A DNA stretch of 64,000 bases from Mycobacterium sp. 852002-50816_SCH5313054-b (GTDB lineage Bacteria > Actinomycetota > Actinomycetes > Mycobacteriales > Mycobacteriaceae): NCBI RefSeq assembly GCF_001667185.1, contig NZ_LZIC01000041.1, positions 1-64,000 on the forward strand. Reading direction: 5' to 3'. The notes under the pieces were generated by a model, which was given only the letters and a program-made list of their open reading frames with translations, searched no databases and was not told the DNA's origin. Positions 47,068-48,507 of this stretch are shown in pieces (the first letter of the stretch is position 1; the number at the start of each line of letters is the position of its first letter). The translations under genes were made by a program, and so were the position numbers.

Positions 47068-47090
47068 TGGACTAGCGCCGTGCGGCGTTT

Positions 47091-47147
47091 CGCGACACAT
47101 AAACGTCTGCGACGACACGCCGAGATGTGTCGCAACGGTTTATGTCT
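47091..47147. repeat. 57-bp quasi-palindromic element, left copy
   Basis: Starts CGCGACACATAAACG and ends GGTTTATGTCT. It matches the reverse complement of 48026-48082 at 46 of 57 positions without gaps. It also folds on itself: ACATAAAC (47097-47104) pairs with GTTTATGT (47138-47145) and TGCGAC (47108-47113) with GTCGCA (47129-47134). It lies between the methyltransferase stop and the nuclease start. Confidence 0.8.
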
Positions 47148-47184
47148 GGGGGATCCAGTCGCCGGGTAGCGACGTCTTCCGTTT

Positions 47185-48033
47185 GTGGACGAGGTGTTCA
47201 TCGGCAGCGAGGCGGTGCGCCAGGGGCGGCTAAGTCCCTACCAATTGCGCACCGAATTCCGCGCGATCTATCCCGATGTTTACCTGCCGGCCCACGCCGC
47301 CCCGTCGCTGCGAACCCGATCGGTCGCGGCGTGGCTGTGGTCGGGCCGGCGCGGCGTCGTGGCCGGCCTTGCCGCGGCGGCGCTGCACGGCGCGCGCTGG
47401 ATCGACGACGACGTGCCCATCGAGTTGATCTGGCGCAACCAACACGCTCCGACCGGCGTGATCACCCGTAATCAGCGAGTTCGGCCGGATGAGGTCACCC
47501 GCGCCGTGGGTCTGCCGGTGACCACTCCTGCGCGCACGGCGTTCGACCTGGCCAGGCAATTGCCCACGGGCGAGGCGGTGGCGCGACTCGACGCGTTGAT
47601 GCGGGCGACACCGTTTTGCGCCGAGCAGGTGTGGCTGCTGGCCAAGCGGTACCCGGGTGCGCGCGGCCTGCGACGGCTACGCACCGCGCTTCCGCTGGTC
47701 GATGCGGGCGCCGCGTCGCCCAAGGAGACGTGGCTGCGCCTCTTGCTGATCGACGCCGGGCTGCCGGCTCCCGAGACACAGATACCGGTAAATGAGAATT
47801 GGCGAACCGTCGGCGTACTCGATATGGGCTGGGAGAGATACAAAGTGGCCGCCGAGTACGACGGTGACCAACACCGCACCGACCGCCGCCAGTATGCCCG
47901 TGATCAGTGGCGGACACGCAGGCTCGAGGCACTCGGCTGGATCGTTATCAGGGTGATCGCCGAGGACAAGCCGGCGGAAGTCGTGCGATGCGTGCGCGAA
48001 GCGCTCGCCCGTAGGGGGTTTCGCGAGACGTAA
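47185..48033 (+). CDS. DUF559/Vsr-like PD-(D/E)XK nuclease-fold protein with AbiEi-like N-terminus
   Basis: 282 residues. The N-terminal two thirds resemble the AbiEi-type antitoxin-associated proteins of mycobacteria (RRGVVAGLAAAALHGARW; LPVTTPARTAFDLARQL). The C-terminal third has the very-short-patch-repair/DUF559 nuclease pattern: Glu in SPKETWLR, Asp in GVLDMGW, ExD in AAEYDGDQH, and LEALGWIVIRV. GTG 47185 chosen. The gene is framed by imperfect 57-bp repeats; the right copy overlaps its last codons. A mobile or defence-related origin is an inference. Confidence 0.8.
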   Translation: MDEVFIGSEAVRQGRLSPYQLRTEFRAIYPDVYLPAHAAPSLRTRSVAAWLWSGRRGVVAGLAAAALHGARWIDDDVPIELIWRNQHAPTGVITRNQRVRPDEVTRAVGLPVTTPARTAFDLARQLPTGEAVARLDALMRATPFCAEQVWLLAKRYPGARGLRRLRTALPLVDAGAASPKETWLRLLLIDAGLPAPETQIPVNENWRTVGVLDMGWERYKVAAEYDGDQHRTDRRQYARDQWRTRRLEALGWIVIRVIAEDKPAEVVRCVREALARRGFRET

Positions 48034-48082
48034 ACGATTGCGATGCGTGTCGGCGTGTCGTCGCAACTGGTTATGTGTCGCG
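48026..48082. repeat. 57-bp quasi-palindromic element, right copy (inverted)
   Basis: Inverted partner of 47091-47147 at 81% identity. It overlaps the last eight bases of the nuclease gene and ends 14 bases before the convergent msrB stop, so it may also act as a bidirectional terminator. Confidence 0.8.
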
Positions 48083-48096
48083 GACCGGGAAACGCG

Positions 48097-48507
48097 CTAG
48101 GCGCCCGTCGGCACCAGCCGCAACGAGATCGAGTTGATGCAGTAGCGCTGGTCGGTCGGGGTGGGGTAACCCTCGCCGGCGAACACGTGGCCCAGGTGGC
48201 TGTGGCAGTTCGCGCACAGCACCTCGGTCCGCGTCGTCCCCATCGAATGATCGGGGCGCAGAATCACCGCGTCGGAGTTCGCCGGGTCGAAGAACGACGG
48301 CCAGCCGCAGTGCGACTCGAATTTCTCTGTGCTGCGGAACAATTCGGCGCCGCACGCCCGGCATTGGTAGACGCCCTCGGTCTTGGTGTCGGTGTACTCG
48401 CCGGTGAACGGCCGCTCGGTGCCGGCGCGGCGCAGCACGTCGAACTCCTGCGGGTTCAGCTTTCGGCGCCACTCGTCGTCGGACAGTTGCACCTTCGGAC
48501 TCGTCAT
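48097..48507 (-). CDS. msrB: Peptide methionine-(R)-S-oxide reductase
   Basis: 136 residues. Reduces the R epimer of methionine sulfoxide. Zinc is held by two CxxC pairs (YQCRACGAEL and LCANCHSHLGH). The catalytic cysteine is in QRYCINSISLRL, and the substrate pocket is SHCGWPSFFDP. Full length for the family. ATG 48507. Downstream of aftC on the same strand with a 9-base gap, so possibly cotranscribed. Confidence 0.95.
   Translation of the reverse strand: MTSPKVQLSDDEWRRKLNPQEFDVLRRAGTERPFTGEYTDTKTEGVYQCRACGAELFRSTEKFESHCGWPSFFDPANSDAVILRPDHSMGTTRTEVLCANCHSHLGHVFAGEGYPTPTDQRYCINSISLRLVPTGA

What the first reader, a model, noticed from the sequence alone, without database searches (positions are those of the whole stretch)
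47091..48082. DUF559 nuclease gene framed by inverted 57-bp quasi-palindromes
Two 57-base elements, 46/57 identical as inverted copies and each folding into its own hairpin, bracket one gene that joins an AbiEi-like region to a Vsr/DUF559 nuclease fold. The pair sits inside an otherwise conserved housekeeping block between the haem cluster and msrB. Options: ends of a small mobile module, operators bound by the protein itself, or bidirectional terminators. If these repeats recur next to other DUF559 genes, this would be a nuclease that travels with its own recognition site.
Basis: partly seen in the sequence, partly recalled or inferred. Interest (0 to 1): 0.72.

Follow-up and report, generated by a model that had tools for sequence, protein, structure and literature searches.

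The report
Nuclease gene with its own palindromes
In this mycobacterial genome a gene for a predicted DNA-cutting protein sits between two copies of a 62-letter palindrome that also stands alone at 18 other places, related genes carry palindromes of their own, and the protein likely recognises its palindrome and uses it to move its gene, which would make this a little-noticed kind of mobile DNA.

Summary
In detail: two quasi-palindromes (47090-47151 +, 48022-48083 -; 46 of 57 identical) bracket one gene (47185-48033) for an AbiEi-like part fused to a nuclease part with the predicted fold of homing endonuclease I-Bth0305I. Wider evidence still supports the bold idea. Of 118 family loci tested, 88 carry a matched flanking repeat pair (10 of 11 in this genome; 5 of 407 control windows), with different palindromes in different clades. 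Between different genomic sites, the palindrome is shared by 30 of 33 locus pairs at >=75% protein identity and by 0 of 1272 below 50%. Geometry is fixed: spacing 930-934 in all 21 two-sided R1 loci (19 distinct), stop codon usually inside the downstream palindrome. At the mt-msrB site relatives show the gene in either orientation, one palindrome alone, or other palindromes. No Y1 (REP) transposase was found in six genomes. I conclude: a REP/RAYT-like unit built on an unrelated nuclease that likely binds and cuts its cognate palindrome. Binding, cutting and mobility are inferred, not shown; copy number follows the gene only loosely.

The parts
47090..47151 (+). upstream R1 palindrome (62 nt), polarity + relative to the gene
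   Evidence: model R1 hit E 1.0e-15; polarity and spacing
47152..47184 (+). 33-nt spacer between palindrome and start codon; in many related modules a PafBC-like promoter lies here, but the window's copy does not match that pattern
   Evidence: gap 33; L031 not among the 59 matches
47185..48033 (+). DUF559/MTES_1575 gene, 282 aa plus stop
47185..47703 (+). codons 1-173: AbiEi-like half, likely the palindrome-binding part
47710..48030 (+). codons 176-282: nuclease half, fold of I-Bth0305I catalytic domain and Vsr; D213, E224, H230 invariant in the 34 aligned sequences
48022..48083 (-). downstream R1 palindrome (62 nt), holding the gene's stop codon 48031-48033; the copy on the msrB side has this polarity in all 12 R1-bearing genomes read at this site
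   Evidence: E 3.8e-15; starts 11 nt before end of stop codon
46312..47067 (+). left neighbour, SAM methyltransferase gene ('mt'), anchor of the site
48097..48507 (-). right neighbour, msrB (SelR), anchor of the site
   Evidence: found in 75 of 78 genus genomes

Best explanation
The finding is a module of about 1 kb in which a gene, encoding a protein predicted to join an AbiEi-like and likely DNA-binding half to a half with the fold of the homing endonuclease I-Bth0305I, is framed by two copies of a 62-nt palindrome that also stands alone at 18 other places in this genome, and the protein likely recognises this cognate palindrome, cuts at or near it, and so would drive its gene into, out of and between palindrome copies. 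The organisation is that of a REP/RAYT unit (an enzyme gene framed by its own dispersed palindromes) with an unrelated nuclease in place of the Y1 transposase. SHOWN by sequence: matched palindrome pairs around most tested members of the family, palindrome type following protein relatedness even between different sites, fixed internal geometry, solitary copies, alternative states of one site (none, one palindrome, palindrome-gene-palindrome in either orientation). INFERRED: that the AbiEi-like half reads the palindrome, probably as a dimer spanning about 60 bp; that the nuclease half cuts there; that repair from a gene-bearing copy, or joining of a gene-plus-palindrome unit to a resident palindrome, inserts the gene; that recombination between the two palindromes removes it again and leaves one. 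How solitary palindromes reach new sites is the least supported step; capture at breaks is one guess.
For: (1) Pairing is general: 88 of 118 loci have up/down flank repeats above the 99th percentile of control windows (5 of 407 controls; 2 of 120 loci dropped for short flanks; controls came from the long named loci only); 10 of 11 in this genome. In other families of the order L307, L309, L318 (direct) and L302 (inverted) show palindrome pairs, judged by eye (24 loci examined, 6 without a readable motif). (2) Cognate: at different sites palindromes are shared in 30/33 pairs at >=75% protein identity, 123/332 at 65-75, 120/1413 at 58-65, 33/3153 at 50-58, 0/1272 below 50 (pairs are not independent). 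(3) At equal overall identity, palindrome-sharing pairs are more alike in residues 1-113 and less in the nuclease, in all three bins (same-site and other pairs pooled, no significance test). (4) Geometry: 23 R1-flanked loci (at least 2 duplicates); the 21 with both palindromes have spacing 930-934 and upstream polarity + in 21 of 21; register of the downstream palindrome to the stop codon -11/-12 in 18 of 21. (5) Copy number: of 78 genomes, six of the seven with 12 or more R1 matches hold an R1-flanked module, the seventh (G052) a remnant. R2, a second palindrome, flanks its own gene here and has 4 solitary copies. (6) Site states at mt-msrB in 30 loci: 8 full (4 each way), 1 remnant, 3 single R1, 5 other palindromes, 6 none, 7 not comparable. 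G092 and G047 alleles differ, to within a few bases, by one palindrome plus the gene. (7) Fold; I-Bth0305I dimer target near 60 bp in print (PMC3943268, passage); AbiEi proteins bind inverted repeats (PMC7319586, abstract). (8) Y1_Tnp in 0 of 6 genomes, while 6 of 14 control genomes ring.
Against: No binding, cutting or movement has been observed. Of the 18 genomes with the closest relatives of the gene (E <= 1e-115) 17 carry R1, but in 8 of the 18 (G006, G015, G023, G045, G063, G073, G080, G090) the best gene is not flanked by R1, so R1 presence does not simply follow an R1-flanked gene; G047 (10 matches) and G076 (5) also carry R1 without one seen; and some module-bearing genomes have few copies (G064 1, G062 3, G067 3). 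At equal protein identity, same-site pairs share the palindrome more often than different-site pairs (e.g. 72/95 against 123/332 at 65-75%), so place matters too. One control window scored 226, above every module. No general target-site duplication: 5.75 against 5.33 mispaired; 7 of 81 at score >= 9 against 3.0%. In the mt-msrB tree the single-palindrome genomes G047 and G077 nest among full ones, so these can be plain deletions between repeats. 30 of 118 loci show no matched pair. G017, the closest relative compared, lacks R1 at 6 of 6 comparable sites, 2 of which are occupied in own, G074 and G001, so loss is as visible as gain. About half of the strong copies are shared with three near relatives (8, 10, 9 of 20), so turnover is not fast. 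Foldseek gave no match at E <= 0.001 (best 6.9e-3, Rv2827c; 3r3p 0.076); the fold claim rests on VIA-align Z. The window's own gene lacks the PafBC-like promoter.
Confidence: 0.57

Rival explanations
1. Operator model: the palindromes are binding sites through which the AbiEi-like protein represses its own gene; the dispersed copies are further regulatory targets or decoys, and the nuclease acts on something else.
For: AbiEi-type proteins autoregulate through inverted repeats (PMC7319586 abstract); the upstream palindrome has one polarity in 21 of 21 and lies 32-35 nt before the called start in 17 of 21 loci; it abuts the place where many modules carry a PafBC-like promoter.
Against: A downstream copy overlapping the stop codon, solitary copies of which none of 20 here lies between divergent genes (in relatives 9 of 55 do), flips of the gene and single-palindrome alleles are not needed for an operator.
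Confidence: 0.18
2. Another agent spreads the palindromes as small non-autonomous elements or they persist as bidirectional terminators; the DUF559 gene only recombines into them and rides along.
For: Most copies are solitary; different palindromes occupy the same intergenic site; R1 exists in genomes where no R1-flanked gene was seen; stem-loop repeat families are in print for M. tuberculosis (Myt-1, 72 nt; PMC2267715 passages; relation to R1 not tested).
Against: Palindrome type follows protein relatedness between different sites; no Y1 transposase in 6 genomes; no covariation (1 pair with a double change, shuffles mean 1.8) and no Rfam match, so an RNA terminator role has no support here.
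Confidence: 0.15
3. A conflict or defence nuclease (AbiEi/DUF559) whose flanking repeats let it be swapped, inverted or lost like other defence cassettes.
For: PADLOC AbiEi models match (E 4e-11); gene presence at the site is patchy.
Against: No AbiEii toxin gene beside it; defence cassettes are not known to me (recall) to own a cognate palindrome family dispersed in the genome.
Confidence: 0.06
4. Phase-variable switch: recombination across the two inverted palindromes flips the gene to change its expression.
For: The gene lies in either orientation at the same site in different species.
Against: The window orientation is one gene clade and the inverted one falls into two, so flips are rare; in the flipped alleles the palindromes are direct, not inverted, which simple inversion between inverted repeats does not give; the upstream palindrome goes with the gene.
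Confidence: 0.04

Closest known systems
REP / RAYT units (REP-associated tyrosine transposases)
   Same: Enzyme gene framed by two palindromes, cognate palindromes dispersed, enzyme and palindrome co-vary (RAYT features as in the abstract of PMC2817692; here).
   Different: The enzyme has an EDxHD-type nuclease fold with an AbiEi-like half, not a Y1 transposase; palindromes are 62 nt, 20 strong copies, and several families coexist, each with its own enzyme clade; abundance follows the enzyme only loosely.
EDxHD homing endonucleases (I-Bth0305I)
   Different: No intron or intein seen around it (not searched for), and the gene does not interrupt its presumed target: an intact copy stands on each side.
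AbiEi antitoxins / Rv2827c
   Different: Fused to a nuclease; no toxin partner gene beside it.
Vsr endonuclease
   Different: Vsr is a mismatch-repair nickase without palindromes (recalled).
REP13E12 repeats of M. tuberculosis
   Same: Mycobacterial repeats tied to a nuclease family (recalled).
   Different: A different nuclease family (HNH/DUF222, recalled); not examined here.

Membership tests
REP/RAYT unit | Y1 (HUH tyrosine) transposase encoded between the palindromes | tested here: not met
   Pfam up to E 0.1 lists MTES_1575, DUF559, AbiEi_1; PF01797 in 0 of 6 genomes while 6 of 14 control genomes ring
REP/RAYT unit | gene flanked by two cognate palindromes in inverted orientation | tested here: met
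   met in the window (+,-); in other clades the pair is direct (+,+)
REP/RAYT unit | enzyme and palindrome co-vary | tested here: met
   same-site pairs share more at equal protein identity, so place contributes
REP/RAYT unit | palindrome abundance follows presence of the cognate enzyme | tested here: inconclusive
   6 of 7 high-copy genomes hold an R1-flanked module, but R1 occurs in genomes with none seen and some module-bearing genomes have 1-3 matches
REP/RAYT unit | usually more than 100 copies per genome | tested here: not met
   20 strong copies plus a few weak ones
EDxHD homing endonuclease | EDxHD catalytic domain | tested here: met
   prediction only; Foldseek E 0.076
EDxHD homing endonuclease | gene or its intron/intein interrupts its own target site | tested here: not met
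   full palindromes on both sides, if the palindrome is the target
EDxHD homing endonuclease | cuts the gene-free allele and homes into it | not testable with these tools
   alleles with one palindrome exist; cutting needs the bench
AbiE toxin-antitoxin | AbiEi-like protein | tested here: met
AbiE toxin-antitoxin | adjacent AbiEii (DUF1814) toxin gene | tested here: not met
   neighbours are a methyltransferase gene and msrB
MITE or DDE-type insertion sequence end | target-site duplication | tested here: not met
   81 copies, mean 5.75 against 5.33; 7 of 81 at score >= 9 against 3.0% of mispaired
RNA-level terminator or structured RNA family | compensatory changes or a known family | tested here: not met

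The most novel reading that the evidence does not exclude
Actinobacterial genomes harbour a class of selfish element in which an AbiEi-EDxHD nuclease reads a palindrome of about 60 bp that it carries on both flanks; each clade has evolved its own palindrome specificity through the AbiEi-like half, each seeds its genome with solitary copies that serve as landing pads, and several such nuclease-palindrome pairs compete for the same intergenic sites. It would be a REP system invented independently of Y1 transposases and the likely origin of many small palindromes between mycobacterial genes.
Probability: 0.47. Interest if true: 0.9.

Novelty: new variant of a known kind. Interest (0 to 1): 0.8.

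Why it matters
Small palindromes between bacterial genes lack an assigned enzyme in genomes without RAYTs. A nuclease family with matched palindromes would give mycobacteria a source for such repeats, would assign a role to a widespread domain of unknown function (DUF559/MTES_1575), and would offer a natural library of nuclease-palindrome pairs in which specificity seems to lie in an AbiEi-like part of about 113 residues, so a recognition code could be tested directly.

Tried and rejected
Phage or plasmid origin: DNA search in phages and plasmids found nothing; protein search found one partial phage record and six plasmid records, all below 60% identity. Rfam: no match. RNA structure: no covariation. 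Target-site duplication: a few suggestive sites (C141:59248, C141:18175) but no general signal over 81 copies. Sequence search of the PDB with the profile gave only a chance-level match (Hax3, E 0.011); Foldseek gave nothing at E <= 0.001; the structural aligner's second look gave the matches used. First control for flank pairing (mispaired loci) was inflated because loci share palindrome families; replaced by same-locus windows. Inserts of 1.1-1.2 kb at C54:70905 (G074, G067) and C54:38508 (G017), which my notebook first listed as candidate modules, gave no DUF559 match. The R2 module of G090 lies where G017 has a solitary R2 palindrome, but the alleles are not an exact palindrome-for-module exchange: no downstream copy is visible in G090 and G017 has about 790 other bases there. 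Papers: 'DUF559' 14 papers, search listing only, none with a title or abstract start about palindromes; mycobacter+Vsr+homing endonuclease+palindrom 0; further listings; passages read in PMC10117815, PMC2267715, PMC11804915, PMC8151990, PMC3943268; outline with abstract of PMC7319586 and PMC2817692. The library holds open-licence papers only, so absence there is weak.

Full report
OBSERVATION. The two elements are real and as described: inverted arms 47086-47156 and 48017-48087, 46 of 57 identical (81% over 57 nt). The hairpins are only modestly better than shuffled DNA (z -1.77 and -2.16). Between them lies one gene, 47185-48033, 282 aa, with DUF559 similarity above the Pfam cut-off and MTES_1575 and AbiEi_1 below theirs; PADLOC AbiEi models match at 4e-11.

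THE ELEMENT IS A DISPERSED REPEAT. A search of the 5.52-Mb genome with the upstream element found 19 places at E < 0.005. Twenty copies aligned without gaps over 62 nt, consensus CCGCGACACATAAACnTCTGCGACGACACGCCGAnAAGCGTCGCAAnGGTTTATGTCTCGCG. A profile made from them (R1) finds these 20 at E < 2e-11, by construction, and a few weaker places. Two of the 20 flank the window gene. The 1.5 kb on either side of the other DUF559 family members of this genome holds no R1 element (best E 0.23). The structure shows no covariation and no Rfam family matches; the palindrome looks like a DNA feature.

MOST FAMILY MEMBERS HAVE THEIR OWN PAIR. The genome has 11 places with a relative of the protein (13 match rows; C18 and C80 hold broken copies in two rows each). 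Their printed flanks showed palindrome pairs of about 55-70 bp, different from R1. Over 120 loci (11 own, 29 from unnamed genus genomes, 80 named mycobacterial loci), 118 with enough flank, 88 have matching flanks above the 99th percentile of windows of the same size and spacing elsewhere in the long named loci, which 5 of 407 windows exceed; 10 of the 11 own loci are among the 88. One control window scored 226, above every module. In other families of the order, L307, L309 and L318 have direct palindrome pairs and L302 an inverted pair, judged by eye; 24 loci were examined, 6 gave no readable motif, and several others showed long non-palindromic matches or none.

COGNATE PAIRS. Comparing 117 loci pairwise (score >= 30 = shared), the palindrome is shared by 30 of 33 pairs at different sites when the proteins are at least 75% identical, 123 of 332 at 65-75%, 120 of 1413 at 58-65%, 33 of 3153 at 50-58% and 0 of 1272 below 50%. 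At the same site the figures are 101 of 108, 72 of 95, 60 of 119, 27 of 109 and 2 of 34: place adds to sharing. Pairs are not independent, and 'different site' means no DNA match in the outer 1.25 kb. At matched overall identity, pairs that share a palindrome are more alike in residues 1-113 (56.1 against 52.2, 58.8 against 55.4, 63.5 against 60.6%) and less alike in the nuclease half (58.6/60.9, 63.4/65.1, 65.9/68.3) (same-site and other pairs pooled, no test).

GEOMETRY. Among 23 R1-flanked loci, 21 (19 distinct) have both palindromes; in all 21 the spacing is 930-934 nt and the upstream palindrome has the same polarity relative to the gene; in 18 of 21 the downstream one starts 11-12 nt before the end of the stop codon, so the stop codon lies within it (exceptions L126, L263, L286). 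The downstream polarity is opposite in the window's gene clade (and in L128/L266) and the same in the others.

DISTRIBUTION. Of 78 genus genomes, 31 carry R1 at E <= 1e-5 and 77 carry DUF559 relatives at E <= 1e-75. With a cut chosen after seeing the data (best hit E <= 1e-115), 17 of 18 genomes with a close relative of the gene carry R1, and 14 of 60 others (Fisher p 6e-8, descriptive). This is weaker than it looks: in 8 of those 18 (G006, G015, G023, G045, G063, G073, G080, G090) the best gene has no R1 flank at E 1e-3, and 7 of the 8 still carry R1. R1-flanked genes were seen in G000, G001, G042 (one side), G054, G062, G064, G067, G074, G078, G092, G008, G051 and G072, and in G005 by the positions of R1 hits. 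Of the seven genomes with 12 or more R1 matches (G000, G001, G052, G054, G074, G078, G092; matches count some places on both strands) six hold an R1-flanked gene and G052 a remnant; but G064, G062 and G067 have a module and only 1-3 matches, and G047 has 10 matches with no R1-flanked gene seen. Only one to a few genes per genome were examined for flanks. A second palindrome (R2, of the paralogue at C71) has 6 places here, of which 2 flank its gene, 8 in G017, 8 in G090, 5 in G073, 2 in G078, 1 in G001 and none in G074. The R2 module lies at one site in own, G017 and G078 and at another in G090 and G073, where G017 has a solitary R2 palindrome.

ONE SITE, MANY STATES. msrB was found in 75 of 78 genomes; 30 loci were read. 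At the methyltransferase-msrB gap: 8 full R1 modules (own, G074, G078, G054 in the window orientation; G001, G092, G062, G064 inverted), one gene remnant with one palindrome (G052), three single R1 palindromes (G077, G006, G047), five other palindromes (G090 and G073 of the R2 family, confirmed; G061 and G063; G017; the last three by eye), six without a palindrome by eye, and seven not comparable. In all 12 R1-bearing genomes the palindrome next to msrB has the same polarity, whichever way the gene points. I read this as a resident palindrome into which the gene came in either orientation; this is inference. The G092 and G047 alleles differ, to within a few bases, by one palindrome plus gene: the single palindrome of G047 (1422-1486 of L110) aligns to both palindromes of G092. 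In a tree of the flanking genes G047 is sister of G092 and G077 of G062+G064, so loss by recombination between direct palindromes explains these two at least as well as gain. In the gene tree the window orientation is one clade and the inverted orientation falls into two.

GAIN AND LOSS ELSEWHERE. G017, the closest relative compared (flanks about 94% identical), lacks R1 at all six comparable sites: mt-msrB, C54:95293, C54:70905, C141:18175, C141:59248 and C54:38508, the last with a 1.07-kb insert without DUF559 match. C141:18175 and C141:59248 are occupied in own, G074 and G001, so G017 most likely lost them, with a few replacing bases. About half of the 20 own copies recur at the same place in each of G001, G074 and G078 (8, 10, 9 of 20) and 3 of 20 in G092; the lists of relatives were partial. 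At C39:14023, where this genome has a solitary R1 copy, M. simulans has an alignable but degenerate palindrome (R1 profile E 0.028) followed by a DUF559 gene 70% identical to the window's; at C104:70194 M. numidiamassiliense has a DUF559 gene, 61% identical, with palindromes only weakly R1-like (E 5e-5 and 1e-3). There is no general target-site duplication. By a crude gene call, of 20 own copies 8 lie between convergent genes, 8 between tandem genes, 4 overlap a called frame and none lies between divergent genes; in 55 loci of relatives the numbers are 19, 18, 9 and 9, and background gaps are 110 convergent, 215 tandem, 123 divergent.

PROMOTER OF RELATED MODULES. TGTCRGTG-N8-YANNNT lies within 110 bp upstream of 33 of 119 genes against 3 of 7732 control windows; a relaxed form in 59 of 119 against 26 of 7732, with a peak 28 nt before the start. 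It resembles the PafBC damage-response motif TGTCGG-N10-TA-N3-T (PMC8151990, passage), except that all 59 have C, not T, in the first place of the -10; with any base there are 67 (59 C, 6 G, 2 A). The window's own gene does not match. Damage control of these modules is thus a prediction for relatives.

VERDICT. The architecture is that of a REP/RAYT unit by features named in the RAYT abstract (PMC2817692): two flanking palindromes and co-variation met, abundance following the enzyme inconclusive. It is not a RAYT: no Y1 domain. It is not a classical homing gene: its presumed target is intact on both sides. I commit to a nuclease-driven mobile module with cognate palindromes; the cognate pairing is well supported, the driving role of the nuclease is inference.

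Noticed in passing
window 47068-48096 and L095, L102, L108, L112, L115: The methyltransferase-msrB gap is a hot spot: R1, R2 and, by eye, two further palindromes occupy it in different species.
   Followed up: partly
upstream of DUF559 genes in L131-L291: PafBC-like promoter, mostly about 28 nt before the start codon, in 59 of 119 modules, with CA instead of TA in the -10; suggests leaderless, damage-linked transcription.
   Followed up: partly
   Followed up: partly
L039/L041 (C18), L040/L043 (C80), L042 (C139): Broken DUF559 relatives in this genome, with frame breaks or stops; those on C18 and C80 are still flanked by matched palindromes.
   Followed up: no
G001:C169:31426-31571: Two R1 palindromes 84 nt apart in opposite polarity at the site where this genome has one.
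   Followed up: no
L118 (G087): Two adjacent copies of the methyltransferase gene before msrB.
   Followed up: no
palindromes of several clades (L033, L038, L186, L108, L115 and R1): A shared asymmetric core like CGACACGCCG appears inside palindromes whose arms differ; seen by eye, not tested.
   Followed up: no
M. tuberculosis family Myt-1 of PMC2267715: A 72-nt stem-loop family with 75 members in print could be a palindrome of this kind; its sequence was not seen.
   Followed up: no
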